Shown piece by piece: positions 142 to 24,900 of a stretch of 64,000 nt of DNA (its first letter is position 1; every line of letters starts with the position of its first letter). Source of the stretch: Armatimonadota bacterium (GTDB lineage: Bacteria > Armatimonadota > UBA5829 > DTJY01); contig JARYMF010000004.1 of NCBI GenBank assembly GCA_029907255.1, forward strand, positions 1 through 64,000. The letters are read 5' to 3'. The position numbers and the translations under genes were made by a program. The notes under the pieces were generated by a model. That model was not told the origin of the DNA. It was given only the letters and a program-made list of their open reading frames with translations, and did not search any database.

Positions 142-2769
142 TCACTCCGCTGTGTCTTCCAGGACCTCGGCTCCAATCTGACGGAGGGTCTCGCGAACAC
201 TCTGGTCGAGGGTGCTCTGTCGGATGCTACCAGAGTCTGAGTGCGCCTGAACAAAAATCTCGACCTCCATTTCCGCTCCATCACTCCATAGGGGCATCAC
301 CACCCCTCGCAGGAAGTCGGAGAGCTTGTCCCATGGGACCTTTGCCCGGAGCCTCACTCTTCGGAACCCGCCGACGAGCGGAGCCACAACCTCGACGCCT
401 GGAGGCGGTTCCTGCACTCTGCCAGGTTGAACCTCCCCTTCGCTTTTGACAGGCGGAACGTCCTCGCCGGTCTTGACGACAAACTCCTTCCGAACCAGGA
501 TTGCCCCAGCGTCCAAGGCTTTGTACGGAAGCTCTTCGTTGATGTAAATCCTATCTCCCACGCGAATACCAAACGTGCCCTCTCGCACGCCGGTCGCCAC
601 TGCCGTCTTGACCACGGACTCGCTCGCAATCATCGGAAACTGTGGAAACTTCAGGAAGGCTTCGTATATCTCGGTCACAGGCTTCTCCTGCTCGTTCTCG
701 TTCAAAGCCGTACGCAGGAGCTTGTCCGGAGTAATTGTCGTGAGCAGAATCTCGCTCTTCAGGTAGTCTAGCACGCGCTTGCTAAGCGGCCCCTTTTCCC
801 CGACCGTCGGCAGTCCCATGTCGTGCCATTCCGCGCCGTTCGGTCCAGCCTTCGCCACGTGCCTGTAAGCCGAAAGGATTTTGAACGGCACGTCGCTCTC
901 GACACTACTCAGCCTGCTCTGGAGCGTGTTCTTGTTGTCATCGGAAAGCTGGCGCATTAGAGCCTTGTCGTCCTTGATAGCCCGCAGTGCCAGCAGTCTC
1001 TTCACCTGAGGGCGCAGTGCCGCCAGTTCCGCCGTGTTAGGGGCCAGCACGACCAGCGTGTTCTGATACGTGCGGAAGGTGATGCCGCTCTTCTTGAAAA
1101 GCTCGTCCGCAAACGCCCCCGAACCGCCGCCGGACATAGAGCATTCGGGCGAAAGCACCGCCAGCTTCAGTTCCTTTGTGTCGGGCACATCCTGAGTCTC
1201 CCTGGGCCAGCAGAACGTCTTCATATCGGTACCTGCCAACTTCGCAACCTGCCTCTTAATCTCGTCGCTAATGTTTTCCTCCCTCACACCATCTTCCTTT
1301 TCTATGATGACTCGGTTCAGGTTCGGCTGAGTGGAAAACGAATATATGCCATGCTCGACGTGCAGGTACCAGAGTTCGTCCTCCATCCTGCCCAGCGCAT
1401 CGCCGATAATCGCCGGGGGTATGCCTTCCCGCAGGATTGCAAGCCGAAGCCGCTGGATGCCGATGCCTTTCGACTCCGACCCGCTGAACGAACCGAAGAA
1501 GATTGCTGTAGCCAGCCCAGATGCGATTCCGAATTTGGCATACTCGGAACCCATCTCGTTGTCTATCTTCTGCGCCTTTGCGTTTCCATCCGCAATGTCA
1601 GCCGCTATTACTCCGTCGTACTCGTTCCCGATGTGCTTCAGGAACTCCCGCCGAATCGAAGCATTGACCAGGTTGATGTGCGCGGGCTGTATCAGCGGGG
1701 CAGAATGCTCGCGCTTGTAGAGATCGGCAATGATAAGAGCCAGCAGGCGCAGTACCCCGCGCGTGCGCTGGAAGTTCGCGTAGGTGCTCCATCGCTCGTA
1801 AAGGATGTCAATCAGTTCAGGGTGAAACGGGTAAGCCTTCCGTATCTTCTCGCGGTATGCCGGTTCGCGCACGTGCCTGGGTATGTCATCGCCCAACGTT
1901 TGGTATATGCGCCAGTAGCTCTCCGCCGTTGCGCTGACCTCCGCGGCGTCCGGCGTATTCTGGAACAAGCGGCGGCGGATGACCTCGTAGACCTCTTCGC
2001 CCTCCACGGGTGTGTATATCGCTTCTACGCGGCCAAAGACGCGCTGAAGCTCCGAAAGCCTGCGCTCGCCTGTCTCGCCGTAGGGGACGCTGGACGGCAA
2101 AGTCGCAACGAGGGCGCATTGAGGCAAGACTTTGACCGTCTCTGTCAACTCTTGGAAGAAGGCGATGATCTGTTCGGGATAGTCCCTCGCCTTGACCGCA
2201 TACTCTACAATCTCATCCAAGAGAATCAGTGTGGGCTGTCCTGCGAGGAGCCTGTGCAGGTTATCCTTCCCCGGCGAGCGCCGCTTCTCGTCGTGCTCCC
2301 TCAGCAGGTCATAGTTCCCCAACTGCTCTGCCAGATGACCCCATATTGTCCTCTTTAGAGTGTCTGTTTCCGTGCCTACGAACGTCACCACCCTGGCTTT
2401 CGGAAGATTCGAAAGGCCTGCCTTGTTCAAAACCGCCCGTGCCAAATCGGTTTCTTCCAGCCCCTCCACACCACGGAAGAGGTGATAAAGGGCAATTAGG
2501 CTGTGGGTCTTGCCGCCGCCGAACGGCGTCTGAATCTGGATGACCGGTTCGCCACTGCCTTTTCCCGCCAGCCGAGATGCGACTGCCGCGCCCAGGTTCA
2601 CCAAGCCTTGCGTGTGGTAAGTCTTCGCGCAAAAAGTTAGGGCATCGCGATAGTCCACCGGTCCGCGGTTGGCAAGCACGTCAGACAGGTCCGCCGCGAA
2701 GACCGACTCGTCGAAGCCTCCCCTTCTTATGTCTTCATGCGGTGTTATCACTTCACGCCATGGTTTCAT
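142..2769 (-). CDS. DUF499-family ATPase, defence-associated
   Basis: This 875-residue protein belongs to the DUF499 group of large P-loop ATPases that travel with DUF1156 DNA methylases. Walker A is visible at about residues 82-89 (PFGGGKTH) and Walker B at about 181-186 (LILLDE), followed by a helix that fits an AAA-like fold. The C-terminal third is less conserved and contains a proline-rich linker near residue 775. It is the last gene of a four-gene operon and starts 20 bases after the methylase stop. In known clusters the family is thought to power or gate the methylase/helicase complex, but the mechanism is not established. The assignment rests on motifs and context. There is no signal peptide or membrane segment, so it should be cytoplasmic. 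The gene is intact. Confidence 0.8.
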   Translation of the reverse strand: MKPWREVITPHEDIRRGGFDESVFAADLSDVLANRGPVDYRDALTFCAKTYHTQGLVNLGAAVASRLAGKGSGEPVIQIQTPFGGGKTHSLIALYHLFRGVEGLEETDLARAVLNKAGLSNLPKARVVTFVGTETDTLKRTIWGHLAEQLGNYDLLREHDEKRRSPGKDNLHRLLAGQPTLILLDEIVEYAVKARDYPEQIIAFFQELTETVKVLPQCALVATLPSSVPYGETGERRLSELQRVFGRVEAIYTPVEGEEVYEVIRRRLFQNTPDAAEVSATAESYWRIYQTLGDDIPRHVREPAYREKIRKAYPFHPELIDILYERWSTYANFQRTRGVLRLLALIIADLYKREHSAPLIQPAHINLVNASIRREFLKHIGNEYDGVIAADIADGNAKAQKIDNEMGSEYAKFGIASGLATAIFFGSFSGSESKGIGIQRLRLAILREGIPPAIIGDALGRMEDELWYLHVEHGIYSFSTQPNLNRVIIEKEDGVREENISDEIKRQVAKLAGTDMKTFCWPRETQDVPDTKELKLAVLSPECSMSGGGSGAFADELFKKSGITFRTYQNTLVVLAPNTAELAALRPQVKRLLALRAIKDDKALMRQLSDDNKNTLQSRLSSVESDVPFKILSAYRHVAKAGPNGAEWHDMGLPTVGEKGPLSKRVLDYLKSEILLTTITPDKLLRTALNENEQEKPVTEIYEAFLKFPQFPMIASESVVKTAVATGVREGTFGIRVGDRIYINEELPYKALDAGAILVRKEFVVKTGEDVPPVKSEGEVQPGRVQEPPPGVEVVAPLVGGFRRVRLRAKVPWDKLSDFLRGVVMPLWSDGAEMEVEIFVQAHSDSGSIRQSTLDQSVRETLRQIGAEVLEDTAE

Positions 2770-2789
2770 CTTATCGTCCCCCGTCCACT

Positions 2790-5543
2790 TTAAATGTCAA
2801 GCGGTATCTGGGAATGCTCGTCCGCCCGTGCCGCTCCCGATGCATAGCTCCTGCGCCCGTAGAGCAGGCCTTGAAGCAGCTGCTTCTCCTTGTCGCCGTC
2901 GGGCAGGACATCGGAAATCGCCTGCGCCACCTGCCAGAAGGCTTCATTGCCGCCGTAGGTCTCGGCGAGGTGCTCCGCCAGTCTCTTCTGATCATTCTTG
3001 TCATAGAGATGCAGAGCGCGGTGAAGGGCATCTATCATCGTGTCGAAATGCGTCTTTCGGGCAAACCGCTCATCCTTCGCCCGTTCCAGCGGGTGTGGCA
3101 CTCGCACGTACTCCTTCTCCTTCAGAACCACGCCGCCCGGGTCCCAGAGATTGGTCAGTTCCACACCGACTCCGGTAGCCAGCTTCCGAGCATCGTCGAA
3201 GGGGACGCGGGCATGGTTGTAGGTCCAGCGGAACAGCACGTAGAACCGGGTTACAGCGTCCACTCCGCCCATAGATGCGCCGCCCCGCATAATGCGCTCG
3301 AGGGCGAATTCGCTGACGACCTTGCGGACGTATTCCAGCAACTCAGCGACTGTTACTGCCTCGCCGGACGGCTTCTCAACCCGCTCGTACTTTCCGAACG
3401 CCTCCACTGCTGGTCCAATCGCGCTCATAAAGAAGTCTGCCCCTCGGATGCCTTCATCCCAGAACTGGGTCAGCCGCTCCCTTATGCGCTCCTCGATTTC
3501 CCGCCGCACTAAAGCAAGCTCGCCCACCTCGTTGGTTCTGCGCTTCCGGCAGACCATATAGATTGACGATGCGAGCGAGGCGGTCTCTTGCGCATTCAAC
3601 CTAGCCTGCATTTCGGTATGTATGGGCCATGAGGCGGTCATGTAAAGCCCGGCGTCCAGCAGGGCATTGATTACTGCCTCCCACGCTTCCGTCGTCTTGT
3701 GGGCAAAGACAACGACTGCGATACCCTCCGGCTTCAAAACACGGTGCATCTCACGAAAGGCTTGTGTCAACATTTTTTCGAAGAACGCCCTTGCCGCGTC
3801 CCTTCCACCCTGACGGTTCGGGTCCTGGACAATCTCCCCCGACTTCGGCGTAAGCGGGGTTGCAAAGAGTTCAGGATATAGGTCCCCAACCGTGCGCTTC
3901 AGCCAGACGTAGAAGAAGTCCGAAAGCGCGGAGTAGTTTACGTTGTCGTAATACGGCGGGTCGGTGAGCACAGCATCGAAGGAGTTGTCAGTCCAGGGAA
4001 GGTCGGCGGCGGAACCGTGGTTGGCGGTGGGTATTGAGGGTTGGGGATTGCAGATAATCTGGGAGCAGTGGAAAAGAACGCCCATATAGTATTCCCAGCC
4101 GGCCTCCGCGCTACCGGTCGAACCGCTAAAGGGATGCAGTTCGACGTAATCCCAAAGCATAGGCAATGCTTGCCGTGAGAATAAGTGCTTGATTGCCTCC
4201 GAAGTGTTCTCCCACCTTGCTAGCACGTTGCAGAAGGCCGCTGTCATGTCCGCTGCCAGTGCCAAATATGCCGCCACCGCCTTCGCAAACTCGCCGTCCG
4301 CACCAGCGTCCAGCATCCGCGCGTGCGCCTGCCGCACCTTCTCTGCAAACGTGATGAGCGCCAGCTTTTGCCGTGTGTTGAACAAATCACCCCACCGCTC
4401 AACGCCATAGCCTCTTCCAGCCACTGTTGTTGGGTCATCCTTGTTCATTTCCTCGTCCGGCACGGGGTCCATGCCCCAGTCAGCCCAGAGAGCCTTGCGT
4501 TTCGCATCCAGGACTGCTTCGGCGGCATGGTAGGCGGCCAGGTCCTTATCGGTCGGCAGACGGTACGTCTTGCCACTGCGCTTCGGATGGTGCAGAACGA
4601 CGGCGACCATGCGCTGGCCCGACTTACCCTCGCGGAAAAGCCTCCGGGTAGTATTGTCGTCAATGCTCCCCCCGCAGAGCGGGCATCGAACATGCGCGCG
4701 CGACACCGTTCCCTCATCCGGGTTGAAGTCCAGCGGCCTCCCATCCTGACCGACTATCTCGAAGTCTATCCGTCCCTCTCCTGGGTTTGGTATCATCCTA
4801 AGAGCGACGCGCTTCTTGTCCTTCTTAGACAACCACGTCTGCCGCATCAGCGGAATGTCCACATTGCAGGAAGGATTCTGACAGGGGATGGTCCTCGCCC
4901 AAATGTAGCCAACCGGTATCGAACCGTCCGGGTCGTTCGGGTAGAACTGCTGTAGTTCCTTCCGGGCTTCCTCCAGCACCCAATTGCCCCAATACCGCAC
5001 GGCATCGAGTAGGGGATTGTTGGATGCGTCCAAGCCCAGCCCGTTCTGCGGTATTCCCATCGAGCCTTGGTAGCCCTTGCCGAACTTCTGCGGGTACTCC
5101 AGCACCGCCTTGTTTAGCAGGACTGCCACCGGGTTGTAGTCTAGGGCATACGTTTCGCATCCAAGGCGCAGAGCCTCCAGCGGGATTGAACCTCCGCCTG
5201 CGAAGCAGTCCAGCACCTTAGGGGCGCGCTCCCCGTATGCCTCGCGTATCAGCTGTCGGGCTTCTTCGATTTTCGGGCTTTCTCCGTTTGACACGGCTTC
5301 CCAAGGTGAAACATCCTTCACAAGGTCTAAGAGATACTCACGGCGATTCGCATCGTCCGGCAGGAGCGCGGCAAGCGCAGTTGCCCTCGACGCAGCAAGC
5401 GGCCGCCTCGCCCACCAGATGTGAAGGGTCGAAATATGCCCGTGCCGGATGTTCTTCTCACGAACGGATTCCTCCGAGACCTTGCGAATCGGGAAATCCA
5501 CCTCAATCAGCCGCTTGCCTTGTGGACCTTCGTGTGAGCTCAT
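2790..5543 (-). CDS. DUF1156 amino-methyltransferase (adenine or N4-cytosine DNA methylase)
   Basis: This 917-residue protein opens with the DUF1156 signature (FPIRKVSEESVREKNIRHGH at about 17-36, then WWARRPLA). The SAM-binding motif DCFAGGGSIPLEA lies at about 112-124, and the catalytic DPPYYDNV is near 526-533. DPPY is typical of enzymes that methylate the exocyclic amino group of adenine or cytosine. Between them are paired cysteines (CQNPSC near 220 and CPLCGG near 288) that could hold zinc. The ATG at 5543 has a GAGGTG site upstream and overlaps the preceding nuclease-like gene by 41 bases, implying coupled expression. In DUF1156-DUF499 clusters this protein is the modification component that marks self DNA. 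The target site cannot be read from sequence. The gene appears complete. Confidence 0.85.
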   Translation of the reverse strand: MSSHEGPQGKRLIEVDFPIRKVSEESVREKNIRHGHISTLHIWWARRPLAASRATALAALLPDDANRREYLLDLVKDVSPWEAVSNGESPKIEEARQLIREAYGERAPKVLDCFAGGGSIPLEALRLGCETYALDYNPVAVLLNKAVLEYPQKFGKGYQGSMGIPQNGLGLDASNNPLLDAVRYWGNWVLEEARKELQQFYPNDPDGSIPVGYIWARTIPCQNPSCNVDIPLMRQTWLSKKDKKRVALRMIPNPGEGRIDFEIVGQDGRPLDFNPDEGTVSRAHVRCPLCGGSIDDNTTRRLFREGKSGQRMVAVVLHHPKRSGKTYRLPTDKDLAAYHAAEAVLDAKRKALWADWGMDPVPDEEMNKDDPTTVAGRGYGVERWGDLFNTRQKLALITFAEKVRQAHARMLDAGADGEFAKAVAAYLALAADMTAAFCNVLARWENTSEAIKHLFSRQALPMLWDYVELHPFSGSTGSAEAGWEYYMGVLFHCSQIICNPQPSIPTANHGSAADLPWTDNSFDAVLTDPPYYDNVNYSALSDFFYVWLKRTVGDLYPELFATPLTPKSGEIVQDPNRQGGRDAARAFFEKMLTQAFREMHRVLKPEGIAVVVFAHKTTEAWEAVINALLDAGLYMTASWPIHTEMQARLNAQETASLASSIYMVCRKRRTNEVGELALVRREIEERIRERLTQFWDEGIRGADFFMSAIGPAVEAFGKYERVEKPSGEAVTVAELLEYVRKVVSEFALERIMRGGASMGGVDAVTRFYVLFRWTYNHARVPFDDARKLATGVGVELTNLWDPGGVVLKEKEYVRVPHPLERAKDERFARKTHFDTMIDALHRALHLYDKNDQKRLAEHLAETYGGNEAFWQVAQAISDVLPDGDKEKQLLQGLLYGRRSYASGAARADEHSQIPLDI

Positions 5544-5967
5544 TTGTCAAGCACCTCAACGATAGATTTCGGTACGGATGGGAAAAACCTGCCGAATTGG
5601 TCCCTAAGTGCCAGACCTCTGTGCCTCTCACAAGCAGTACGTGCACACCGAGCACCCGAAGCCCCGGCATGATATTTCGCACGACCTTGGCAAAGCCGTC
5701 CACGTACGGCAGGGCTATCGCACAGACCACATCCCGGTCGTATATCGAGAGTGTCTGCAACAGCGCCTCAGCGACCGCTTCTCGACAAGTCTGGCTCTCG
5801 CTACCCGCCCGCGCCCCCTTCGCCTCCACATAAAGCCTGCGACGCGAGCCCGGCAGTTCGCACTCGATATCCGGCCCCGGCTCGGAACCATACCTGACTT
5901 TCAGGTTCATAGCGCCGTCTTCGCGCAAGCGCACTGCCACTGCCTTGGTTACCTCCCGCTCATGCAT
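5503..5967 (-). CDS. small PD-(D/E)XK nuclease-like protein
   Basis: This 154-residue protein shows the core of the restriction-endonuclease fold: GPDIEC with Asp33, then LYVEAKGA with Glu48 and Lys50, i.e. P-D-X(14)-E-X-K. The segment after it (VCAIALPYVDGFAKV) fits the following beta-strand and helix of holiday-junction or REase-like folds. Its ATG overlaps the helicase stop by 8 bases (ATGCATGA) and its end overlaps the methylase start by 41, so it is translationally locked into the operon. I infer that it cuts DNA for the defence system or supplies DNA-end binding. It may instead be an inactive structural relative. No named family is recognised with certainty. Confidence 0.65.
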   Translation of the reverse strand: MHEREVTKAVAVRLREDGAMNLKVRYGSEPGPDIECELPGSRRRLYVEAKGARAGSESQTCREAVAEALLQTLSIYDRDVVCAIALPYVDGFAKVVRNIMPGLRVLGVHVLLVRGTEVWHLGTNSAGFSHPYRNLSLRCLTNELTRRSTRQAAD

Positions 5968-8900
5968 TGGTCGCCCCCTGCTTCCAATCCTTCACGACGT
6001 ACCGCACAGTCTCAATCACTTGCTCTGGCTGGAGTAGAGCCGCAGGATTCTGCAAGGTATATAGCTCTGGCTTTGTAGAAACGTTCTCAACCACGTACAG
6101 CCAATACTCTTGCTGGAGCCGTTTTGCCATCAGCCATTCGTTTGGAGTCAGGACGATTTCACCGGTAGTGGCTCTTGCTTTGACCTCAATATAACGGACC
6201 TCACCGTTTGGGTCAATTGAGCGTACATCATAGCCGAGGTTTTGCCGCGATACGTCCTCCGGCGTCCGACCATTTTCATACTCGTATCCCATGGCAACTT
6301 TCATGCCGACAGCCTCGACTTCCGCATCTGAGCGCATCACAGCCCTGTCAGCAGGCGGCTTCGGGACCACGCGCACGACGCCAAGTACCTTTGGACTGGA
6401 CGGCAGAAGGCTCGTCTCACGCCGTATCTCCTCCTCCAGGTCGCTCTTTCGCTTTCGAAGAGAGTCATTTCGACGCTGCTCGTTCTGAATCTCTACATCC
6501 GGCAAAGCCTCGCCCTTCGCGCGGCGGGTCTCGTAATCCATGAGCTTCGCGTCGGAATCGAGAATCATCTGTTCCAAAGATCGCACGCCGTACTTTCGCT
6601 TAATTTCCGCGTCTCGGTTTCGTTGCGCGGCAATCTCGGCTCGGTACTCCTCCAGGACGTTCTCGATGGCATATGCCACAACTTCGGTCTCATTCGGGCA
6701 CTGTTCATCTGCGCCAGACTCCGCCTCAGGTTTCAGGTCCCAGAGGATGGAGGAATTGACCAAGCGCATATCCCCCTCCATCGGCTGGTATACCGCAAAG
6801 AGCCTGCGCCCGGCGACCTGATTTCTGCCATCCCGTATCTCTCCCTCGATGAACCAAACCCAGCCGTCTAGCCGCCCATCCGGGTCAGCGAAGACAGCGC
6901 CGCGGTTCACATCCTTCGCGCTTTTGGTGAAGATGTGCTCGATGATGGCCTCCAGCAGTGGATGACCCGGGGCGACGAAGACGGCCTCGTTTCGGCGGGC
7001 GTCCGCCTTCTCGAAAGCAATCTTGCTGTATTCGCGGAAGACCTCGCCGAAACGATGCTTGAAGCTCGGAGGAACATTGCGCACCTCATAGGGCACGCTG
7101 AGCACCCGCCAGACGCCGCCATCACGCCGCTCGATATTCACGCCCACGAAGGCACTTGCCCGCTCGAAGAACTGCTCGATGTACTCCGGCACGAGCCGAT
7201 TTTCCCGCGCGGCGCGCTGCTCGCCTAATACACGTTGGAGATCAACATGCCGGGTCGCCAGGGCTTCCATCGCGGCTTCCTTCGTCCTCTCGACCGCCAC
7301 CTTGTCAGGGACAGCTTCAATCTCGCCGACAATCTCCTCCATCGTTCGGCGGTTCGCGATGGCCTCGACAATCAAGTCCTTCAAACTGCGACCGGGCAGA
7401 ACCTCGCCGATGACATCGAATACCCGGTCGGTGCCGAGGGCTTCTTGGATGCGCTTCAGCTTGCGGAAGATAGCTTCTAGCACCTGGCCTTCGCGCGTGT
7501 CGGCGGCGACCAGATTATAGATATGGACTTCCCTCTGCTGGCCGTATCGGTGCACGCGGCCCATGCGCTGTTCGAGACGGGTTGGCGTCCAAGGGATGTC
7601 ATAGTTCACCATAAGCGCGCAGAACTGGAGGTTGATGCCCTCGCCGCCTGCCTCGGTCGAGACCATGACCTGCGCCCGCTCGCGGAAGTCGTGTTCGGCG
7701 CGAATGCGGGCGTCGAGGTTCATTGCCCCGTGGAGGACAGCTACCGAAAAGCCCCATGCCCTCAGCTTCTCGGCTAGGTACTCTAGGGTCTCCCTGGACT
7801 CGGTGAATATCAACAGCTTCTCGCCGGTCTTCTGTATTTGTTTGTCGGTAATGACCTGACGAAGCTCTTTCAGCTTTGTCTCGATTTCCTGCTTCTCGGC
7901 ATCGCGGGCAAGGCGAATCAGGTCTGCCAAGGTGTCTATCTCCTCCTGAAGCTCCTCGCGGGTCTCAGCGGCGGTCAGGCGCTCAACGAGGTCCTCCTCT
8001 TGCTGCAGGCGGTCGGCTTCGGGTGCATCTTCGAGGGCGTCCTCGTCCACCGCGCCTTGCTCCGCAAGCCACATGCCGCAGCTCAGAAGCTCCTCCAGGC
8101 GGGCTTTGCGTCGTTCAAGTGACCGGCGTACGGCTCGGACACTGGACGCCATTCTACGCTGGAGAATCAGCAGGGCGAAAGCCACGTTCCGCTTCTCGGT
8201 GGACAAAGCCTTGTTGTAAAACTTTTCAACGTAGGACGTGACTGCGTTGTAGAGCCGCTTCTCGTCATCGCTGAGCCGGTAGGCTCTCGTGACGACATGA
8301 CGCGGCGGAAACAGCGGTCGGCCATCGAAGTCCTTGAGGTCTTCCTTCAGCCTGCGCAGGAACAAGGGGTTGTCGTGGTTCTTGACGGATTCCAGCAGAA
8401 TCTCGGTGTTTGCGAACATGCCAGGTTCGAGGAGGTCCAGAAAAAGGCGAAAGTTCTCCGGGTCGCCTCGATGCGGCGTGGCTGTCAGAAAAAGCAGGAA
8501 GTCGGTCGTGCGCGACAGAAGCTCACCGAACTTGTAGCGCTCAGTTCGGTTAAGCTTATCCCCATATCGGTATGCCGACATCTTGTGAGCTTCATCCACG
8601 ACGACCAGGTCCCACCGGACTTCGCCCAGGCTCGCCATTACGTCGTCCTGCTTCGAGAAGTCCATTGAGGCGATCACTTGAGAGGTATCCTGCCAGACGT
8701 TCCGGCCCCAGTTGGCGTTCACAACCGCTCGGTCCACAACTGTGAAGGTCTCGCCGAAGCGCTCCTTCATCTCCCGAAGCCACTGCTCCTTCAGGTGCCC
8801 GGGAACGACGATGAGGCACCGGCGGACGATGCCTCGATACTTCAACTCCTTCAGGAGCAAGCCGGTCATGATGGTCTTACCAGCGCCGGGGTCATCCGCA

Positions 8901-9268
8901 AGGAGAAACCTGATACGCGGATTGCGCAGGATAAAGTGATACACGGCTTCGATTTGATGCGGCAGTGGGTCTACCTGAGAAACGTTTACGGCGAAGATCG
9001 GGTCAAACTGTTGGGCGTATCGGATGCGGTGCGCCTCCATCGCCAGGAAGAAGGCTTCACCATTGCCGCCGAAGTCACGACCAGTTTCGCTCCTGACTTC
9101 GACGCCGGACAGGTCAGCCGGACTGAAGATGTTCGAGTAGAACTGGCCTGTGTTCACGCCGACGGCCTCAATCTTCGTTCGGTTGCCAACCGACTCTACG
9201 GTCACAACCCGGACCGGCTCCGGCCAGAAATCACCGTGTAGTATATCACCCACTTTCGGAGGAATCAT
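5960..9268 (-). CDS. SNF2/DEAH-type helicase with C-terminal DUF3883 domain
   Basis: This 1102-residue superfamily 2 translocase shows Walker A at about 125-132 (DDPGAGKT), DEAH at 225-228, TATPH at 262-266 and a motif VI (QRMGRVHRYGQ) typical of SNF2-like enzymes such as DrmD of class 1 DISARM. After the helicase core comes a long charged, partly coiled-coil region. The end carries a DUF3883-like module, itself PD-(D/E)XK-like: GYD at about 1012-1014 and EVK at 1028-1030. It is the first gene of the operon, and the promoter should lie in the GC-rich region above 9268. It probably translocates on incoming DNA and recruits or activates the methylase and nuclease. The gene is intact. Confidence 0.85.
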   Translation of the reverse strand: MIPPKVGDILHGDFWPEPVRVVTVESVGNRTKIEAVGVNTGQFYSNIFSPADLSGVEVRSETGRDFGGNGEAFFLAMEAHRIRYAQQFDPIFAVNVSQVDPLPHQIEAVYHFILRNPRIRFLLADDPGAGKTIMTGLLLKELKYRGIVRRCLIVVPGHLKEQWLREMKERFGETFTVVDRAVVNANWGRNVWQDTSQVIASMDFSKQDDVMASLGEVRWDLVVVDEAHKMSAYRYGDKLNRTERYKFGELLSRTTDFLLFLTATPHRGDPENFRLFLDLLEPGMFANTEILLESVKNHDNPLFLRRLKEDLKDFDGRPLFPPRHVVTRAYRLSDDEKRLYNAVTSYVEKFYNKALSTEKRNVAFALLILQRRMASSVRAVRRSLERRKARLEELLSCGMWLAEQGAVDEDALEDAPEADRLQQEEDLVERLTAAETREELQEEIDTLADLIRLARDAEKQEIETKLKELRQVITDKQIQKTGEKLLIFTESRETLEYLAEKLRAWGFSVAVLHGAMNLDARIRAEHDFRERAQVMVSTEAGGEGINLQFCALMVNYDIPWTPTRLEQRMGRVHRYGQQREVHIYNLVAADTREGQVLEAIFRKLKRIQEALGTDRVFDVIGEVLPGRSLKDLIVEAIANRRTMEEIVGEIEAVPDKVAVERTKEAAMEALATRHVDLQRVLGEQRAARENRLVPEYIEQFFERASAFVGVNIERRDGGVWRVLSVPYEVRNVPPSFKHRFGEVFREYSKIAFEKADARRNEAVFVAPGHPLLEAIIEHIFTKSAKDVNRGAVFADPDGRLDGWVWFIEGEIRDGRNQVAGRRLFAVYQPMEGDMRLVNSSILWDLKPEAESGADEQCPNETEVVAYAIENVLEEYRAEIAAQRNRDAEIKRKYGVRSLEQMILDSDAKLMDYETRRAKGEALPDVEIQNEQRRNDSLRKRKSDLEEEIRRETSLLPSSPKVLGVVRVVPKPPADRAVMRSDAEVEAVGMKVAMGYEYENGRTPEDVSRQNLGYDVRSIDPNGEVRYIEVKARATTGEIVLTPNEWLMAKRLQQEYWLYVVENVSTKPELYTLQNPAALLQPEQVIETVRYVVKDWKQGATNA

Positions 9269-9326
9269 GCCGCATTCACCTTTTCCTTAGTGAAAACACC
9301 CGTGCCTGAACATCACGACGCGTATG

Positions 9327-9351
9327 AACGCCCACCACTTCCCTGGGCGTT
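9327..9351 (-). promoter_or_regulatory. 8-bp stem-loop upstream of the helicase operon
   Basis: AACGCCCA and TGGGCGTT form a perfect 8-base stem around a 9-base loop, 58 bases above the helicase ATG. This fits a leader hairpin or an operator. No T-run follows on the minus strand, so a terminator is unlikely. Confidence 0.4.
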
Positions 9352-9432
9352 ACTGCTTTCGGGACTGAGGCCACGGGGTGAACAAGACCGGCCGATGATC
9401 ACCGGCATTCAGCCCTGCCAGCGCACTTCAGG

Positions 9433-9446
9433 AATGCGAGCGCATT
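9433..9446. promoter_or_regulatory. 14-bp palindrome, possible operator
   Basis: AATGCGAGCGCATT reads AATGCG-AG-CGCATT, a dyad of two 6-base arms, about 165 bases above the helicase start. Such dyads often bind dimeric repressors that silence defence operons, but no regulator gene is present in the visible cluster. Confidence 0.3.
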
Positions 9447-10138
9447 GACAGGAAACGTTCACCCATAGCTATCCCGGATGGCAGTTTCGACGCGGCTATA
9501 CTTGATTCCTTCAAACTAGGGCGAGGGGCGGAGGGGAAACCATCCGCATCAGGCGGTCAGGAGCCGTCGCCGGCGAGAAGCGAGCAAGGAGAACACCCCA
9601 GAGCTTCTTAAAGGGCGGGCATTTCGAGGTCTATGACGAGGCATTCCCCATTATCTGCGCGGCTGATATCTTGCCAGGCGAGGTTCCATTCGCCTTTGGT
9701 AGCCTTGGCAATCCGAGCGCATAGCGCGTGCTGGCTCAACCGCAATTCGTGACGGCGGTCCACCCTTGAATTTCGGCGAGGAGCGTTGCCAAGACCTATA
9801 GACTAGCCCAAAGAGCTCCTCAATGCAAGCTTTCACCCCGTTGGATAGCATAAGTCTGGAAATGTTTGCGTACGTGGTCTCACGTGAGAAGTTGCGCATC
9901 CCCGGGTCGCTGCTGGGAGCACTGAGAATGCTGGATTCCCCAGCGACTTCAGCGGTGTGCCTTTTTATTTTATCATTCACTGGCAAATCAATTTTCTTTG
10001 GCACTTTAAACCAAACAAACCCTGATAGTAGCTGAGGTATTCCAGTTTCAACACCAACCACTGCACCAAAATTAAATTTAGTTTACTCAGAAAAACAAGC
10101 AGGTTATTTGACTTCTGTCCAATAATATATCCTCTGCT

Positions 10139-11044
10139 ATGGAGCGGTATCGCCTATCAAATCTCAAAGCCTTAGAAGCTGAGAGCATACACATAATCCG
10201 CGAAGTCGTTGCCGAATTCGAGCGGCCCGTGATGCTCTACTCAGTCGGCAAGGACTCCTCGTGCATGGTCCGTCTAGCCCAAAAGGCGTTCTACCCCGGC
10301 CGCATACCCTTCCCCCTGCTTCATGTCGACACGGGGATGAAGTTTCCTGAAATGTATGAATTCCGCGATGCATTTTGCAAGGAAATCGGCGCAGACCTGA
10401 TTGTATATCGCAATGAAGAAGCAATCGCACAAGGAGCTGACCCCTGGGACTGGGGCACGGTGAAGTGTTGTGCAGCACTAAAAACCCAGGCTCTTTTAAA
10501 CGCCCTCAAGGAAGGCGGATTTGATGCTGCCTTCGGAGGCGCACGACGGGATGAGGAAAAATCACGCGCCAAGGAGCGCATATTTTCGTTTCGCGACTCT
10601 TTTGGCCAGTGGGACCCCAAAAACCAGCGACCCGAACTTTGGAATATCTACAACGGACGCATCAAAAAAGGTGAAAGCATTCGAGTATTTCCGCTCTCTA
10701 ACTGGACTGAACTTGACATCTGGCTCTATATCTATACCGAAGGAATCCCTGTTGTGCCAATGTACTTTGCAAAAGAACAGCCAGTTGTTGTAAGGGAGAA
10801 CCGCCTTATCCCAGTCTACGAACGCACACGCCTTCTCCCGGGCGAAAAGCCAGAAATGGTCATGTGCCGCTTCCGCACGCTTGGATGCTATCCATGCACA
10901 GGAGCCATCCGCTCATCAGCAAAGACAGTGCCAGAAATTATCGAAGAAATGATGCTCGTTCGCCATTCGGAGCGTATTACGCGGCTAATTGACCATGACC
11001 AAGACAGTTCAATGGAGCAAAAGAAGCGCGAAGGTTATTTTTAA
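10139..11044 (+). CDS. cysD: sulfate adenylyltransferase subunit 2 (CysD)
   Basis: This 301-residue protein makes APS from ATP and sulfate together with CysN. The PP-loop SVGKDSS lies at 35-41 and is preceded by the family's [20 protein letters not shown] stretch. The conserved [12 protein letters not shown] loop and the cysteine pair in LGCYPCTGA are all present. Length matches the family (about 300). No Shine-Dalgarno is visible before the ATG; a later start would cut into conserved sequence, so this start is kept. cysNC follows 52 bases downstream on the same strand. With no PAPS reductase in view and a sulfotransferase next door, the pathway here may serve sulfation rather than sulfide production. 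Confidence 0.95.
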
Positions 11045-13795: not shown

Positions 13796-14215
13796 TCACT
13801 CCAGATTGCGCATAATATTAGCCAAACCCTTCCTCATTGCCGCCAACGTTCTACCATTTCTCCACTGCACATGCGGGCGGTCGGAGAATCCCTTGAAATC
13901 GCCTCCCCATTCTAAGCCGCATTCCCTCGCAATCCTGCCAAAAACGCTCCAAGGACCATTCCAGGTAAGTCGGCCGCCAACAACAAATGCATAATCAGCA
14001 GCTAGCCCGAAATTATGCCATGAGTAGCCACCACGCGCCTTGGTAACAATTTTACCTGGCTTTGTTCTGCCTAATGCATACAGCCGGTCCTGCTCTTCGA
14101 TTGATCTATAGCCACACACAAGCTTTACATAAATACCTCGCTCAAGTAGGCGTTTCTCGAATAATCCTAACTTCGCTCGAAACTCCGCATCAAGACCGTC
14201 ATATTTGTTTGCCAT
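13796..14215 (-). CDS. M15-family peptidoglycan peptidase (endolysin)
   Basis: This 139-residue protein matches phage L-alanyl-D-glutamate / D-Ala-D-Ala peptidases of family M15. The zinc ligands are His67 and Asp74 in SWHNFGLAADY and His115 in RPHVQW; Glu102 in LEWGGD is the likely catalytic base. GYRSIEEQDRLYALGR is the typical upstream segment. No signal peptide is present, so it needs a holin to reach the wall, and two candidate holins lie directly upstream. It is the last gene of the cassette and would cut peptide stems of peptidoglycan at host lysis. Confidence 0.88.
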   Translation of the reverse strand: MANKYDGLDAEFRAKLGLFEKRLLERGIYVKLVCGYRSIEEQDRLYALGRTKPGKIVTKARGGYSWHNFGLAADYAFVVGGRLTWNGPWSVFGRIARECGLEWGGDFKGFSDRPHVQWRNGRTLAAMRKGLANIMRNLE

Positions 14216-14297
14216 GTTTTACCTATCTCTGAAAATTAAAATTTGTGTTAAAACCAACTACCGCCAAAAACATCATCAAGTGCCAATCTTTGCACGT

Positions 14298-14612
14298 CTA
14301 CAATGCCTTTCTGCGAATGATTACATGCTCAATAAGAAAATTGATTGTTGAATCTGGAAACCACTTGCCAAGAAGTTTATACAGTTCCGACTTTGCCCAT
14401 GAACGCACATATTCTCGCTTTTCGTCATCAGATTTCCCATGCAGTGCCTGAGCAGTCTTGACCCCCTGGGTGATAATGCCAACAATGTTTGGGTTGCTAA
14501 TCAGCCTTAAAACTTCTCTTGGCACACGCAGCCTATTCATTTGTTTGCCAATGACATAAGAAATTACAGGCAGAATGTATGGCAAAAACTGCCATAGGTG
14601 AATTTTATTCAT
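14298..14612 (-). CDS. phage membrane protein, LLH-holin-like
   Basis: This 104-residue protein starts after a good AAGGAGAG site. Residues 5-24 (HLWQFLPYILPVISYVIGKQ) form one membrane span. The rest is helical and charged, with KREYVRSWAKSELYKLLGKW and a final LIEHVI segment that recalls the C-terminal half of phage LLH-type holins. Similarity is by eye and weak. Its place beside an XhlA-like protein and an endolysin supports a lysis role. It could also be a small structural or unrelated membrane protein. Confidence 0.5.
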   Translation of the reverse strand: MNKIHLWQFLPYILPVISYVIGKQMNRLRVPREVLRLISNPNIVGIITQGVKTAQALHGKSDDEKREYVRSWAKSELYKLLGKWFPDSTINFLIEHVIIRRKAL

Positions 14613-14624
14613 TTGAACTCTCCT

Positions 14625-14894
14625 TTACCTTCCAAGCACATGCCCTATGAAAGCTCCTATAAGAGCAATTGCTAGCGCACTACCTAGCCACTGAATGCCA
14701 CGGATGCTCCGCTCCAAAACAGTTATCCTTTCCTGGTGTTCGACCATCTTGCTGGGGATGTAAGCCCTAATGGCGGAAAGCTCTGAGATAACAAGTTCGA
14801 TTTTCTCCTCAATCACCGCCAGCCGGGAGCTCACATCATCGCTCTTTGCTGCTGTTATCCGCCTTCTCAAACAAGTCACCCCAATCAAGACCAT
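14625..14894 (-). CDS. XhlA-like holin/hemolysin candidate
   Basis: About 89 residues. The middle (SSRLAVIEEKIELVISELSA onward) is a coiled-coil helix, and the C-terminus (WLGSALAIALIGAFIGHVLG) is a membrane anchor. This order is typical of XhlA-type holin accessory proteins of phages. The start is uncertain: ATG 14894 has no clear RBS, and a TTG at 14903 and later GTG codons are possible. It begins within 10 bases of the previous stop, suggesting coupling. It probably helps the endolysin cross the membrane. Confidence 0.5.
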   Translation of the reverse strand: MVLIGVTCLRRRITAAKSDDVSSRLAVIEEKIELVISELSAIRAYIPSKMVEHQERITVLERSIRGIQWLGSALAIALIGAFIGHVLGR

Positions 14895-14903
14895 AAATAA
14901 CAA

Positions 14904-15215
14904 TTAAACCAACAGGATTACCTGCATCACAACCGTATCTTTTGCCCTTAGCTTTGCCAACTTCTTGATAGTATAAGTTCTCCCATCTCGTGTAATTGTT
15001 TCGTCAATTGATGCGCTTGCGTCGGCTGGAATAAAAGCAATAAGCGCGGGCCTGGTTATTGTTGAAATTTCAATATCATCAAAAAACATGTTCATTCTCT
15101 GCATATCAAGCTGCTGGAAAACGCCTCTTGTAGGTCTTCCTCCAATTGCAAAAGACTCGCCATATGCTTCAAATGCGTTCTTTGCCCGTTCCTTTAGTGC
15201 CTCCATTGTCACCAT
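14904..15215 (-). CDS. phage head-tail joining-like protein
   Basis: This 103-residue protein has an N-terminal helix (EALKERAKNAFEAYGESFAI) followed by an all-beta body ending DTVVMQVILLV. The layout resembles lambda FII / Gifsy-type head-tail attachment proteins and is at the expected place after the connector. Its ATG overlaps the connector stop (ATGGTGA). Identification is from shape and position, not from a firm signature. If correct, it would close the portal and dock a tail, although no tail genes are in view. Confidence 0.5.
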   Translation of the reverse strand: MVTMEALKERAKNAFEAYGESFAIGGRPTRGVFQQLDMQRMNMFFDDIEISTITRPALIAFIPADASASIDETITRDGRTYTIKKLAKLRAKDTVVMQVILLV

Positions 15216-15646
15216 ATCCTCATATCATCGCTTGTGAAAATCCTATCCGTATCTTCTGTCGTGCTTGCAATCTGAGTTACGTCTGCTAAATCGTCCACTG
15301 CCTTTCTGAAGGGCCGAAGTCTCAACTGGCCCTGCTCGATTAACTTTGCGCCATACTGTGGACGGGCTCCTATCGTTAAACTGCCGATTTTGAGCGATTC
15401 CGATGCGCCTGCTTTTCGAAAAAGTTGCTGGATGAATTCACCGCTCATTATCTCAAGCATCCCAAGCTTTAAGAGCGCCTGAAGTCTGGAATTTCCAGTG
15501 TCATTTAAGTATGCATCGGCGATTGTATACTCAATTCCTGGCTGCATCTCGGCAATCAGGGCATCAATATTTGAATCATAAGTCGTATCCGATATAGGAA
15601 TCATGCACTTTCGTTTAATCTCCGCCTTTGTAATTGTGATTGCCAT
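15209..15646 (-). CDS. phage head-tail connector (gp6/DUF1320-like)
   Basis: This 145-residue protein is mainly helical at the N-terminus (ITKAEIKRKCMIPISDTTYD, then IDALIAEMQPGIEYTIADAY), like head-completion adaptors of the gp6/DUF1320 type that bind below the portal. The ATG at 15646 is chosen over upstream starts because a GGAGGA site sits 7 bases before it. It is expected to assemble as a ring on the portal. The exact family is an inference. Confidence 0.6.
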   Translation of the reverse strand: MAITITKAEIKRKCMIPISDTTYDSNIDALIAEMQPGIEYTIADAYLNDTGNSRLQALLKLGMLEIMSGEFIQQLFRKAGASESLKIGSLTIGARPQYGAKLIEQGQLRLRPFRKAVDDLADVTQIASTTEDTDRIFTSDDMRIW

Positions 15647-15753
15647 CGATAATCCTCCGCGAAATAGGATAAATTGGAGTGATGAAGTAGCAAGAAAATA
15701 AGCCATAAGAAAAAGGCCGCCATCATCCTGCCAATACTCCACCACTCCACTGA

Positions 15754-16095
15754 TTACATTGGTATGTAATAGACAATTGCTTCCGCGCCTGCACCAGTCA
15801 AAGTAACCCCAAGATTTCCTTTGCATGCAATTGGCAGTGCAGGGAAAACAGGTCGGCTACCTGAGGTCATTTTTGCTTTGAGAACAATCTGGGTATCGCT
15901 CTCTATGGTTATCGTAGCAACCTCAGTTCCGACGTTCAGGATTACCCCCACGAGCCGACATGGGCCCGTCTGAATCATAGTAGTCTCATTCACAAAACAG
16001 GCTTCACACTCTTCGGGCGTCATTAAGAGAGCGCCACTTGGAACCGCAATAAGCTCCTTTGCCTGTTTTGTACTCCTATCTGCTGCTGTAATCAT
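15754..16095 (-). CDS. small phage structural protein, unassigned
   Basis: This 113-residue protein is preceded by a GGGGGAG site at good spacing. The sequence is beta-rich (VGVILNVGTEVATITIESDT) with two cysteines near 30 and one near 46. It lies between the major capsid and the connector, where phages often keep a decoration or head-fibre protein. I recognise no family. Confidence 0.55.
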   Translation of the reverse strand: MITAADRSTKQAKELIAVPSGALLMTPEECEACFVNETTMIQTGPCRLVGVILNVGTEVATITIESDTQIVLKAKMTSGSRPVFPALPIACKGNLGVTLTGAGAEAIVYYIPM

Positions 16096-16111
16096 TAATA
16101 GTCTCCCCCTA

Positions 16112-17017
16112 TCAGCTTACCTGACTACCATACGCAAGCTGCCATAGTCCGAATCCCACGTTGTATCTTGCTCGGACGCCGTAAACATACCTATCGCGCA
16201 TGAACCCGTTTTCCGAGTTCGCCTCCAGAGCCGCAAATTCTATGGGAATTCGGGACTGGAAGATTACAGGCTTGATGACACGCTTGGTGCATAGTAGGAA
16301 CCAGTCATTTGAATCTGTAAGGTATGGACTGACAATTAAATCGAGCGCACCTTTGAGGACGTTTTTCCTGGTTTCAGTCTTCCCAACCTCGCTATCAGGC
16401 GCATAGATTGACCCAAGGAGTTCCATTGCCGTCCACTTAAGATCAGGCGAAACAACAAGTGTGTCAGGGATGATTCCCATTGGCTTACCCTGGTCATCTT
16501 TGAACTTCATCATTGCAGTGAAAGCCGCTTGAAGCGATGACGCAGATAGGGCAGAAGTACCCTTGTTCGATTGCGTGCCGGACTCACCATCGCTATGGTC
16601 GGTGTCGAAGAAAAATTGACCGTCATAGCACAAAGTATTGAACCCGTCCCTAAGCAGGCCAAAAACCAACTCCTCCTGATGACGTCTAGCCTCATCTGCC
16701 AATCCTTGGATTCTCAGCCGAATTTGGCCATATTGGTCGTCCTCCAGTGCCGCGCGGTCAACTGCAATCGAGGCTTCCCAAGTTTTGTTTTTAATTGAAT
16801 AATCATGCTCAAGCAGACCAGCAGGTATTCGCTCATCTTTAAACTCCCGCATCCTGGGAGTTGCCCCCAGCCATGCATATTTCTCGATATCATTTTCTGA
16901 AGGAACAATAGTGGCAATTCGCTCCCAGTCGCTGCGATATGCTTCGTAGGCATCGAAGAATACTGCCCGAAGTCCGGCTTCCAGAAGCTTTGGAATATCT
17001 GACTTGACTATTGGCAT
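16112..17017 (-). CDS. major capsid protein, Mu gpT-like
   Basis: This 301-residue protein resembles the Mu gpT head subunit. Typical stretches are IPKLLEAGLRAVFFDAYEAY at the start, WLGATPRMREFKDER, IDR/VDRAALEDDQYG, FFDTDHSD near the middle, and LVVSPDLKWTAMELLGS with the KNVLKGALDLIVSPYL strand. ATG 17017 is chosen because AAGGAGAT lies 8 bases upstream; an ATG 11 codons earlier lacks a site. It would form the HK97-fold shell. The gene is intact and of normal family length (about 300). A cement-like protein is encoded just upstream. Confidence 0.88.
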   Translation of the reverse strand: MPIVKSDIPKLLEAGLRAVFFDAYEAYRSDWERIATIVPSENDIEKYAWLGATPRMREFKDERIPAGLLEHDYSIKNKTWEASIAVDRAALEDDQYGQIRLRIQGLADEARRHQEELVFGLLRDGFNTLCYDGQFFFDTDHSDGESGTQSNKGTSALSASSLQAAFTAMMKFKDDQGKPMGIIPDTLVVSPDLKWTAMELLGSIYAPDSEVGKTETRKNVLKGALDLIVSPYLTDSNDWFLLCTKRVIKPVIFQSRIPIEFAALEANSENGFMRDRYVYGVRARYNVGFGLWQLAYGSQVS

Positions 17018-17126
17018 GGAAACAAATCTCCTTTCATACGTTTTCGCCAACTCAAAAGAGCAAAAAAAAGATACTCAGCTAACTTGCTCTTCCAAGAACA
17101 TGTGCCACAAAAGCAGTGTATTCTCT

Positions 17127-17549
17127 TTATCTTGCATAGCCATCAATTCGCACACGCACCAAACTAGGGCTAACCACCTCGGCGATTACACCACATTTAA
17201 TGTCATTTGCAACGGCCGCCGGGTCATCGTCTACTGTTTGGTTATCCACGATGTAGACCTCCTTACCGACAACAGCCTGAGTAGCATCGCCGCCGTTATA
17301 TACGAACATATGTTCGCCCGCTTTTTCAACACGGATTTCCTTATCGCCTGCCAAACCCGCAGAGTTATCCACCTGCTCATAGCTAACCCCGGCGAATTTG
17401 AAGTCGGCAGTGTCAGCACCATTTGCAACATAGCCACTTGTGTTAATGCAGACCAAGACGCCCTTCGGTATTTTGACGCTCGACATCTTCATCGCCTTGA
17501 GCATACCATCACTGCGCTTTGTATCACGATCCGTTGTAGTCGCTGTCAC
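17127..17549 (-). CDS. capsid cement/decoration protein (DUF2190-like)
   Basis: This 140-residue protein starts at GTG 17549 after GGAGGTAGGATAG. Its beta-rich sequence (KIPKGVLVCINTSGYVANGA, AGVSYEQVDNSAG, VYIVDNQTVDDD, VIAEVVSPSLVRVRIDGYA) matches the DUF2190 type of small head proteins that bind the outside of the shell. The position between protease/scaffold and major capsid is the usual Mu-like order. Confidence 0.7.
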   Translation of the reverse strand: MTATTTDRDTKRSDGMLKAMKMSSVKIPKGVLVCINTSGYVANGADTADFKFAGVSYEQVDNSAGLAGDKEIRVEKAGEHMFVYNGGDATQAVVGKEVYIVDNQTVDDDPAAVANDIKCGVIAEVVSPSLVRVRIDGYAR

Positions 17550-17619
17550 CTATCCTACCTCCATTTCTAAATGTCGCATATGCAGATTTAAAACCTATAT
17601 TGTCATCCACAATCACTTG

Positions 17620-18462
17620 CTACTCTTTCGCATACTTCTCAAGCTTTTCCCTGTTTATTCCGAGCTTTGCAAGAAGGTTTTCCTCCTCCAGCGTCAACAG
17701 CCTTGCCGATTTCTCCACAGCCTTTGCAGTCTCGCTGAACTCTATTACCTTGGGTTGGTTCATCAGGAACTGAATGAACAACTCAGCCACCGTGCTTTCA
17801 CCATCCGAGAATGTAACTACTTGGTTGGCATTCAAGAGGATTGCCCGAGCAAACGGCTCTGATGCTGGGACCAGCTTACCATTGGCTTTGAACTCAGCAA
17901 TTTGCGCCTCCACGTCGCGCGACTTCAGTGCAAACCTCAGCTCTGCGATCTCTTTCTCAGCCTCGTTCACCTTCTCATTCACCTCCTTCCTACTTCGTCT
18001 TATTTGATTAAATGCTTGCGAATCACCAAACCTGGCGCCCAATGGCAGGCAGTCAATAGCGCCCTTTCTGCCAAACATTGCCGCAGAAGGAACGCGCGGG
18101 TTCAGCACAAGCGAAACCTCCGCCAGTCGCAGTGGGTCCTTTAACAACGCAACGCTCAGCTTCTTCACTCCACGGCGCTCCAAGAATCCAGCCACGTCTG
18201 CCGGAAATGCCAGCCTTGCAAAGAGTTCCTTTCCCCGCCGCCATATCCGCTTTACAACTCCAAGTGGGTCTAGCGGGCTGTCGGTATGTTCAACCTTCAC
18301 GGGCGCCTCGTGAAAATTGCGGACAATAGTATCCAAATCATCTTCTGTAATGATGAGCCCTTTATCCGTGTAATTGCCAGCTTCGAATATCTTTGCGTCC
18401 TTTTCTACCGGCATTGGCTCTGATGGGGAGTAATCCACATCAAAATAAATGGCTCCATTCAT
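17620..18462 (-). CDS. prohead protease with C-terminal scaffold
   Basis: This 280-residue protein looks like a Mu gpI-type protein. The first 130 residues carry a serine-protease-like core with His59 (VKVEHTDSPLDPLG) and Ser103 (KKLSVALLKDP), then LAEVSLVLNPRVPSA, a conserved end of the prohead protease fold. From about 150 on it is charged and coiled-coil (KEVNEKVNEAEKEIAELR), as expected for an internal scaffold. The ATG follows GGAGGT. It would guide shell assembly and then cleave scaffold and capsid. The catalytic assignment is inferred from spacing. Confidence 0.7.
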   Translation of the reverse strand: MNGAIYFDVDYSPSEPMPVEKDAKIFEAGNYTDKGLIITEDDLDTIVRNFHEAPVKVEHTDSPLDPLGVVKRIWRRGKELFARLAFPADVAGFLERRGVKKLSVALLKDPLRLAEVSLVLNPRVPSAAMFGRKGAIDCLPLGARFGDSQAFNQIRRSRKEVNEKVNEAEKEIAELRFALKSRDVEAQIAEFKANGKLVPASEPFARAILLNANQVVTFSDGESTVAELFIQFLMNQPKVIEFSETAKAVEKSARLLTLEEENLLAKLGINREKLEKYAKE

Positions 18463-18523
18463 GGCAAACCTCCCATAGTTAATTAGTATTGAAATGATGC
18501 CAGTTTGTTTTTCGGTTTATCCC

Positions 18524-19729: not shown

Positions 19730-19906
19730 GATGACCTCCTTGGGCAATAGCAGCTTAATTCGCTCTCAATATTACAAATCCTCGGGAAGGCGGAAAATAA
19801 AAGAACAGACTGTGAACGTTTCTGGAAATTTTTCAAAAAGCGCACATCACCACAAGAAGCAGGAAGCTCTACATGCGGTTAAGTATATCTAGCGAAAACT
19901 CGCGGC

Positions 19907-20941: not shown

Positions 20942-21030
20942 AATTTTCCACCTTTGCAAAGCGCAGTACCTCGGTAGATTTTTGCCATTGTCGAAGAATC
21001 TAAAACCTCTTGCTGAATTAGGGCAATTAA

Positions 21031-21059
21031 AAAAGGGCAGGCTTTCCGCCTGCCCTTTT
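21031..21059 (-). terminator. rho-independent terminator after yebC
   Basis: A 12-base stem (AAAAGGGCAGGC / GCCTGCCCTTTT) with a 5-base loop is followed on the minus strand by a T-run. It lies about 37 bases after the yebC stop and before the Gfo/Idh gene. Confidence 0.85.
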
Positions 21060-21095
21060 GTTGTGTCATTAAGTCAAATATCCTAATGCTGACGA

Positions 21096-24883: not shown

Positions 24884-24900
24884 AAGCACTCGCTCCTATT

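What the first reader, a model, noticed from the sequence alone, without database searches (positions are those of the whole stretch)
142..9268. Four-gene DUF1156-DUF499-SNF2/DUF3883-nuclease operon
Helicase, small PD-(D/E)XK protein, DPPY methylase and DUF499 ATPase are overlapped or within 20 bases. The set resembles DUF1156/DUF499 anti-phage clusters and class 1 DISARM, but DUF3780, HerA and DrmA/B/C are missing and a tiny nuclease-like gene is added between helicase and methylase. It is GC-rich relative to its surroundings by eye.
Basis: partly seen in the sequence, partly recalled or inferred. Interest (0 to 1): 0.7.

Follow-up and report, generated by a model that had tools for sequence, protein, structure and literature searches.

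The report
Hma defence operon with extra nuclease
This is a bacterial anti-virus operon of an already described kind (a DNA-marking enzyme, a motor ATPase and a DNA-cutting helicase) that carries one extra, undescribed small DNA-cutting protein found in the same spot in a few distantly related bacteria.

Summary
Four minus-strand genes overlap or lie 20 bases apart at 142-9268, in a 58% GC block against 48% around it. Profile searches identify three of them as HmaA (Snf2 helicase plus NOV_C/DUF3883 nuclease), HmaB (DUF1156 adenine methylase) and HmaC (DUF499 AAA+ ATPase). This is the Hma system, renamed in 2026 "Type-1 DUF499-centred BREX-related (BR)" system. It is not DISARM, and not the DUF3780-bearing Type-2 cluster. 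The window begins at a contig edge, but a sister genome shows that the operon ends after HmaC. The small fourth gene (154 aa) is real: it is under purifying selection, and relatives occur in the hmaA-hmaB interval of seven Hma loci (window included) from five phyla. With five homologues AlphaFold gives a PD-(D/E)XK-type fold (pLDDT 82) with conserved D33, E48, K50 and Q71. No Pfam, PADLOC, NCBIfam or PHROG family describes it. The hmaA-hmaB gap is a cargo slot that elsewhere holds Schlafen, HEPN-nucleotidyltransferase, PIN, OLD-like ATPase and Fic genes, so the extra nuclease fits a known theme of auxiliary effectors. Verdict: a new member of a known kind, with a new small auxiliary nuclease family. 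Interest is modest.

The parts
5960..9268 (-). hmaA: Snf2/RapA-type helicase with C-terminal NOV_C (DUF3883) PD-(D/E)XK nuclease domain, 1102 aa
   Evidence: PADLOC HmaA 3e-214; Pfam SNF2-rel_dom 3e-17, Helicase_C 5e-26, NOV_C 2e-24; GKT/DEAH kept in nearly all long relatives
8222..8959 (-). SNF2 N-terminal helicase domain of hmaA (aa 104-349)
   Evidence: Pfam PF00176
7541..7876 (-). Helicase C-terminal domain of hmaA (aa 465-576)
   Evidence: Pfam PF00271
6056..6319 (-). NOV_C/DUF3883 nuclease domain of hmaA (aa 984-1071), catalytic D1014, E1028, K1030
   Evidence: Pfam PF13020; the three residues kept in all relatives that reach this far
5503..5967 (-). Small PD-(D/E)XK-like nuclease, 154 aa, no named family ('S')
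   Evidence: Homologues in the hmaA-hmaB interval of six other loci; AlphaFold pLDDT 82 with PD-(D/E)XK topology; dN/dS
5818..5871 (-). Catalytic motif of the small nuclease, D33 ... E48-x-K50
   Evidence: Invariant in the five aligned homologues
2790..5543 (-). hmaB: DUF1156 adenine-type DNA methyltransferase, 917 aa
   Evidence: PADLOC HmaB 8e-131; Pfam DUF1156 5e-22
5190..5204 (-). SAM-binding motif I FAGGG of hmaB
   Evidence: sequence; glycines invariant in 50 relatives
3951..3962 (-). Catalytic motif DPPY of hmaB (amino-methyltransferase motif IV)
   Evidence: sequence; D and Y kept in 49 of 50
142..2769 (-). hmaC: DUF499 AAA+ ATPase, 875 aa, no N-terminal HEPN extension
   Evidence: PADLOC HmaC 7e-152; Pfam DUF499 7e-53; Walker A at 2506-2520 and Walker B at 2212-2217 kept in 64 relatives

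Best explanation
The locus is a chromosomal Hma (Type-1 DUF499-centred BREX-related) restriction-like defence system with a small extra PD-(D/E)XK nuclease built into the operon. Most likely working: HmaB adds N6-methyladenine at a target site to mark host DNA. HmaC, a BrxC-like AAA+ ATPase, assembles on DNA and inspects it. On unmarked invading DNA it engages HmaA, whose Snf2 motor moves along the DNA while its C-terminal NOV_C nuclease cuts. The small protein S is recruited to the same complex as a second nuclease, either cutting the other strand or another DNA form, or backing up HmaA. Shown here: gene content, order, intact catalytic motifs, selection on S, conserved position of S, and the predicted fold of S. 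Inferred: anti-phage activity, adenine as the methylated base, the order of events, the nuclease activity of S and its contact with the others.
For: HmaA/B/C are the best PADLOC hits of the three large proteins, by a wide margin over other families. Catalytic motifs are intact and nearly invariant across relatives. HmaC is found in 57 of 291 genomes of the phylum, and the A-B-C operon is repeated in dozens of loci. S: homologues between hmaA and hmaB in the sister species (81% identity), G114 (48%), a Chloroflexota MAG (60%) and a Bacteroidota MAG (48%); a frameshifted copy in an Acidobacteriota MAG and a contig-end copy in a Bipolaricaulota MAG. They belong to the HmaA relatives closest to the window. 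AlphaFold with five homologues gives pLDDT 82 and the helix-strand-strand-strand-helix-strand order of PD-(D/E)XK nucleases. Most top PDB fold matches are such nucleases (BspD6I nickase, Hjc, NucS, McrC, HindIII), though weak, best E 0.004. S and the core travel together: island genes in the two sister species are 81-87% identical (dS 0.6-1.3) while flanking cysD is 99% (dS 0.17) and the other flank 96% at DNA level. Literature: Hma described in PMC8565338; Type-1 BR, with PD-(D/E)XK REases (standalone or fused) as the most prevalent auxiliary effectors, in PMC12839542, which cites an experimental study of HmaA defence.
Against: No experiment on this locus. The two-sequence AlphaFold run of S failed (pLDDT 43); only the five-sequence run was good. 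Fold matches of S are below strict significance (none with E <= 0.001 in PDB). S is absent from close relatives such as L092 and L093, where hmaA and hmaB adjoin directly, so it is not essential for Hma function in general. Only seven S copies were found.
Confidence: 0.85

Rival explanations
1. S is an interchangeable cargo gene (a backup effector) that uses the hmaA-hmaB slot but acts independently of the Hma complex, like the Schlafen, HEPN-nucleotidyltransferase and PIN genes found there in other genomes.
For: Of 80 loci with A before B, 44 have more than 250 nt between the two genes; where both intervals are visible, 26 of 47 A-B gaps exceed 600 nt against 12 of 47 B-C gaps. The cargo includes SLFN_AlbA_2 (7 proteins), nucleotidyltransferases (5), HEPN/HepT, PIN (3), OLD-like AAA (5) and Fic (2). 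In L094 and L095 S lies in the slot behind a Schlafen protein.
Against: S overlaps both neighbours in the window (8 and 41 bp) and sits directly upstream of hmaB in every locus where that can be seen, also behind other cargo in L094, which looks more integrated than most cargo. It is found near one HmaA branch only.
Confidence: 0.35
2. S is an inactive relative of PD-(D/E)XK nucleases that serves as a structural or DNA-binding adaptor of HmaA or HmaB.
For: 'Inactive REase' domains are described in BR helicases (PMC12839542).
Against: D33, E48, K50 and Q71 are invariant in homologues, three of them only 48-60% identical to the window protein.
Confidence: 0.12
3. The locus is a reduced class 1 DISARM system (DrmD plus adenine methylase).
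For: HmaA matches PADLOC DrmD at 1e-156 and NCBIfam DISARM_DrmD at 358 bits.
Against: 358 bits is under the NCBIfam cut-off of 610; HmaA scores better with HmaA (3e-214); no drmA, drmB or drmC in the operon; DUF499 ATPases are not a described DISARM part.
Confidence: 0.02

Closest known systems
Hma (helicase-methylase-ATPase) candidate defence system, PMC8565338
   Same: Same three proteins; HmaA, HmaB and HmaC profiles are the best PADLOC hits; same A-B-C order as most loci seen here
   Different: Extra S gene between hmaA and hmaB; HmaB carries a DPPY amino-methylase motif, whereas the text of PMC8565338 calls it an m5C methylase (its PADLOC profile is annotated DNA-adenine methylase)
Type-1 DUF499-centred BREX-related (BR) system, PMC12839542
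   Same: Snf2 helicase with active C-terminal PD-(D/E)XK domain, DUF1156 N6-methylase, DUF499 ATPase, no DUF3780; standalone REases reported as frequent auxiliary effectors
   Different: The S family is not named in the text read; its supplementary tables could not be opened, so S could be among the unnamed REases listed there
Type-2 BR / NCBIfam 'anti-phage' DUF1156-DUF499-PLD helicase cluster (NF042962-NF042964)
   Same: Related DUF499 and DUF1156 proteins
   Different: Scores far under the cut-offs (222 of 1200, 220 of 1000, 135 of 1100 bits); no DUF3780 or PLD nuclease
Class 1 DISARM and ARMADA (PMC12458937)
   Same: RapA/BrxHII-like helicase paired with an adenine methylase
   Different: No DrmA/YprA helicase, DrmB or DrmC in the operon; a DUF499 ATPase instead

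Membership tests
Hma / Type-1 BR | DUF499 AAA+ ATPase (HmaC) with Walker motifs | tested here: met
   HmaC 7e-152, DUF499 7e-53; Walker A/B kept
Hma / Type-1 BR | DUF1156 N6-adenine-type methylase (HmaB) | tested here: met
   HmaB 8e-131, DUF1156 5e-22; FAGGG and DPPY motifs
Hma / Type-1 BR | Snf2 helicase with active C-terminal PD-(D/E)XK domain (HmaA) | tested here: met
   HmaA 3e-214; NOV_C 2e-24 with D/E/K kept; activity itself not tested
Hma / Type-1 BR | Three core genes in one operon without DUF3780 | tested here: met
   ORFs and sister genome; no DUF3780 hit among the operon proteins
Hma / Type-1 BR | Anti-phage activity and methylation by the system | not testable with these tools
   needs a laboratory test
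Type-2 BR (NCBIfam anti-phage set) | DUF3780 gene and PLD-helicase | tested here: not met
   scores below NCBIfam cut-offs, no DUF3780
Class 1 DISARM | DrmD at or above the curated score | tested here: not met
   358 bits, cut-off 610
Class 1 DISARM | drmA, drmB and drmC beside it | tested here: not met
   operon has four genes only; sister genome shows gpsA and cysD as flanks
PD-(D/E)XK nuclease superfamily (S) | Conserved D ... E-x-K motif | tested here: met
   D33, E48, K50 invariant in five homologues
PD-(D/E)XK nuclease superfamily (S) | Core alpha-beta-beta-beta-alpha-beta fold | tested here: met
   AlphaFold pLDDT 82; fold matches to PD-(D/E)XK enzymes but E 0.004 or worse
PD-(D/E)XK nuclease superfamily (S) | Nuclease activity | not testable with these tools
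   needs a purified protein
NOV_C (PF13020) for S | Pfam score at or above the gathering score | tested here: not met
   none for the window protein; 15.8 bits for the sister copy, cut-off 22.1; hhalign to the HmaA NOV_C domain 6% probability, aligned at the catalytic motif

The most novel reading that the evidence does not exclude
S defines a four-gene subtype of Hma in which a dedicated small nuclease is a fixed subunit that cuts together with HmaA (for example one strand each) and is held off until HmaC licenses it. The G114 locus, which keeps intact hmaA and S but has lost most of hmaB and hmaC by one deletion, would fit a nuclease pair that is harmless without HmaC.
Probability: 0.3. Interest if true: 0.45.

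Novelty: new member of a known kind. Interest (0 to 1): 0.3.

Why it matters
It removes the apparent oddity: the cluster is a standard Hma/Type-1 BR system. What remains new is a small nuclease family with a fixed place in one branch of Hma across five phyla, and a measured preference of cargo genes for the hmaA-hmaB gap. Because S is small and naturally present or absent among close relatives, it is a simple handle for asking what accessory nucleases add to a BREX-like system.

Tried and rejected
S as a duplicated NOV_C domain of HmaA: BLASTP finds nothing useful and hhalign gives 6% probability, matching only the catalytic motif, so shared superfamily at most. S in plasmids, phages, viral contigs or, from its sequence alone, the species genome collection: no match. 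AlphaFold of S from two sequences failed and was repeated with five. DISARM and Type-2 BR membership: failed on curated scores and gene content. Hidden or decayed S in the near relatives L092, L093, L096, L097, L098 and L099: none, apart from spurious minus-strand matches in L093. The empty site: cysD and gpsA were looked for in G002-G004 but lie on different contigs or are missing, so the pre-insertion state was not recovered. The Halomonas HmaA paper (PMC11232893) is not held, so its result is cited second-hand from PMC12839542.

Full report
What is there. Four minus-strand ORFs at 9268-5960, 5967-5503, 5543-2790 and 2769-142 form one co-directional block, with overlaps of 8 and 41 bp and a gap of 20 bp. 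The block is 58.4% GC against 48.1% for the rest of the window. The window is the start of contig C4 of a 3.23 Mb, 33-contig genome. The phylum is inferred to be Armatimonadota, because same-phylum contigs of 292,721, 7,224 and 6,517 bases equal in length the named records LDYB01000020, JAPWUZ010000132 (Armatimonadetes) and CALGZO010000050 (Fimbriimonadales).

Identity of the large genes. PADLOC profiles name them HmaA (3e-214), HmaB (8e-131) and HmaC (7e-152). Pfam adds SNF2, Helicase_C and NOV_C to HmaA, DUF1156 to HmaB and DUF499 to HmaC. NCBIfam models for DISARM DrmD and for the DUF499/DUF1156/PLD anti-phage set all score far below their cut-offs. In alignments of 98 HmaA, 50 HmaB and 64 HmaC sequences the GKT, DEAH, NOV_C D/E/K, FAGGG, DPPY and Walker residues are kept almost without exception (the B set includes one sequence with S and C in place of D and Y, probably the odd paralogue of this genome, L005).

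Operon limits. In the sister species G001 the same four genes stand at the same place, split over two contigs, with cysD upstream and gpsA on the opposite strand downstream. The window genome's own gpsA end is on contig C23. So the operon has four genes, and nothing is lost at the window edge that the sister keeps.

Divergence of the island. Flanking cysD is 99% identical at protein level (dS 0.17) and the gpsA side 96% at DNA level, but the four island genes are only 81-87% identical (dS 0.6-1.3). DNA identity falls from about 95% to 75-90% at roughly 10,200-9,000, where GC also changes. The simplest reading, an inference, is that the two species carry different alleles of the whole system at one site, exchanged by recombination. 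S is in both alleles. HmaB residues 441-520, just before DPPY, are only 38-55% identical while most of the protein is 80-97%, which suggests different target sites; residues 291-435 are missing from the sister assembly.

The small gene S. It is under purifying selection (dN/dS 0.13 over codons 1-125; its last 29 codons, where the overlap with hmaB lies, are unconstrained: 0.93). It has no family in Pfam, PADLOC, NCBIfam or PHROGs. Clear relatives were found only in Hma loci: G001, G114, a Chloroflexota and a Bacteroidota MAG, a frameshifted copy in an Acidobacteriota MAG, and the first 29-30 residues at a contig end in a Bipolaricaulota MAG. The search was biased to Hma loci except in the 291 phylum genomes, the plasmid, phage and viral collections and the first species-genome scan. 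In the HmaA tree six of the S-bearing loci fall in one 11-member branch (support 89/96, so not firmly fixed) spanning several phyla; the tree needs several gains or losses of S. The seventh, L095, falls just outside it.

Fold and motif. With five homologues AlphaFold gives mean pLDDT 82 and pTM 0.80. The order H3-16, E20-24, E34-37, E44-49, H57-74, E80-87 places D33 and E48-x-K50 where PD-(D/E)XK enzymes hold them, and Q71 on the next helix. PDB matches are dominated by PD-(D/E)XK nucleases, but weakly (best E 0.004). A viral-protein library gives similar nuclease matches.

The cargo slot. In 80 loci with hmaA before hmaB, 44 have more than 250 nt between them; where both intervals are visible the A-B gap exceeds 600 nt in 26 of 47 and the B-C gap in 12 of 47. 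Cargo proteins include Schlafen AlbA_2, nucleotidyltransferase plus HEPN pairs, PIN, OLD-like ATPases, Fic and patatin. These counts come from loci chosen by HmaC or HmaA similarity; fragmented genes may inflate some gaps. PMC12839542 describes the same classes of auxiliary nucleases around BREX and BR systems; the slot preference is measured here.

A natural deletion. In G114 hmaA (71% identical) and S are intact, but hmaB stops after about residue 351 and the next frame begins at about HmaC residue 619. If real and not an assembly error, a cell tolerates HmaA and S without the methylase and the ATPase, which fits nucleases that need HmaC to act.

Mechanism. From the named families: HmaB marks self DNA, HmaC (BrxC-like) inspects and assembles, HmaA moves along and cuts, S adds a second cut or a backup. 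PMC12839542 proposes this model for Type-1 BR without S, and cites experimental support for the HmaA helicase-nuclease.

Verdict. Known system, new small nuclease family in a known role: new member of a known kind.

Noticed in passing
L005 (own genome, contig C2:1-9636): A second HmaB-like methylase at a contig start (1452 aa, 1e-73 to HmaB) with SPPC in place of DPPY and a cysteine/histidine-rich C-terminus, followed by a 1563-aa Druantia DruE/YprA-like helicase and a 167-aa protein; perhaps a relative of the YprA/ARMADA type systems.
   Followed up: partly
L088:6372-11974 (G114): Decayed Hma locus: hmaA and S intact, one deletion joins the first third of hmaB to the last third of hmaC in different frames.
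   Followed up: partly
window 13796-26331: Prophage-like block near the cysD-cysNC genes: endolysin, major head protein, head maturation protease, portal protein, DnaB-like helicase.
   Followed up: partly
window 9000-10200: Sharp fall in identity to the sister species, and a stretch at about 9600-10000 mostly missing there, at the edge of the GC-rich island.
   Followed up: partly
window 2790-5543 (HmaB aa 441-520): Identity to the sister HmaB falls to 38-55% just before DPPY, as if the target-recognition part had been exchanged.
   Followed up: no
L049, L050, L052, L053 (same-phylum genomes): A group of Hma loci with hmaC before hmaA (order B-C-A) and, in L050 and L052, an hmaB split into two adjacent frames.
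   Followed up: no
L005:10479-11999: Tandem RCC1-like repeats in a minus-strand protein beside the second methylase locus.
   Followed up: no
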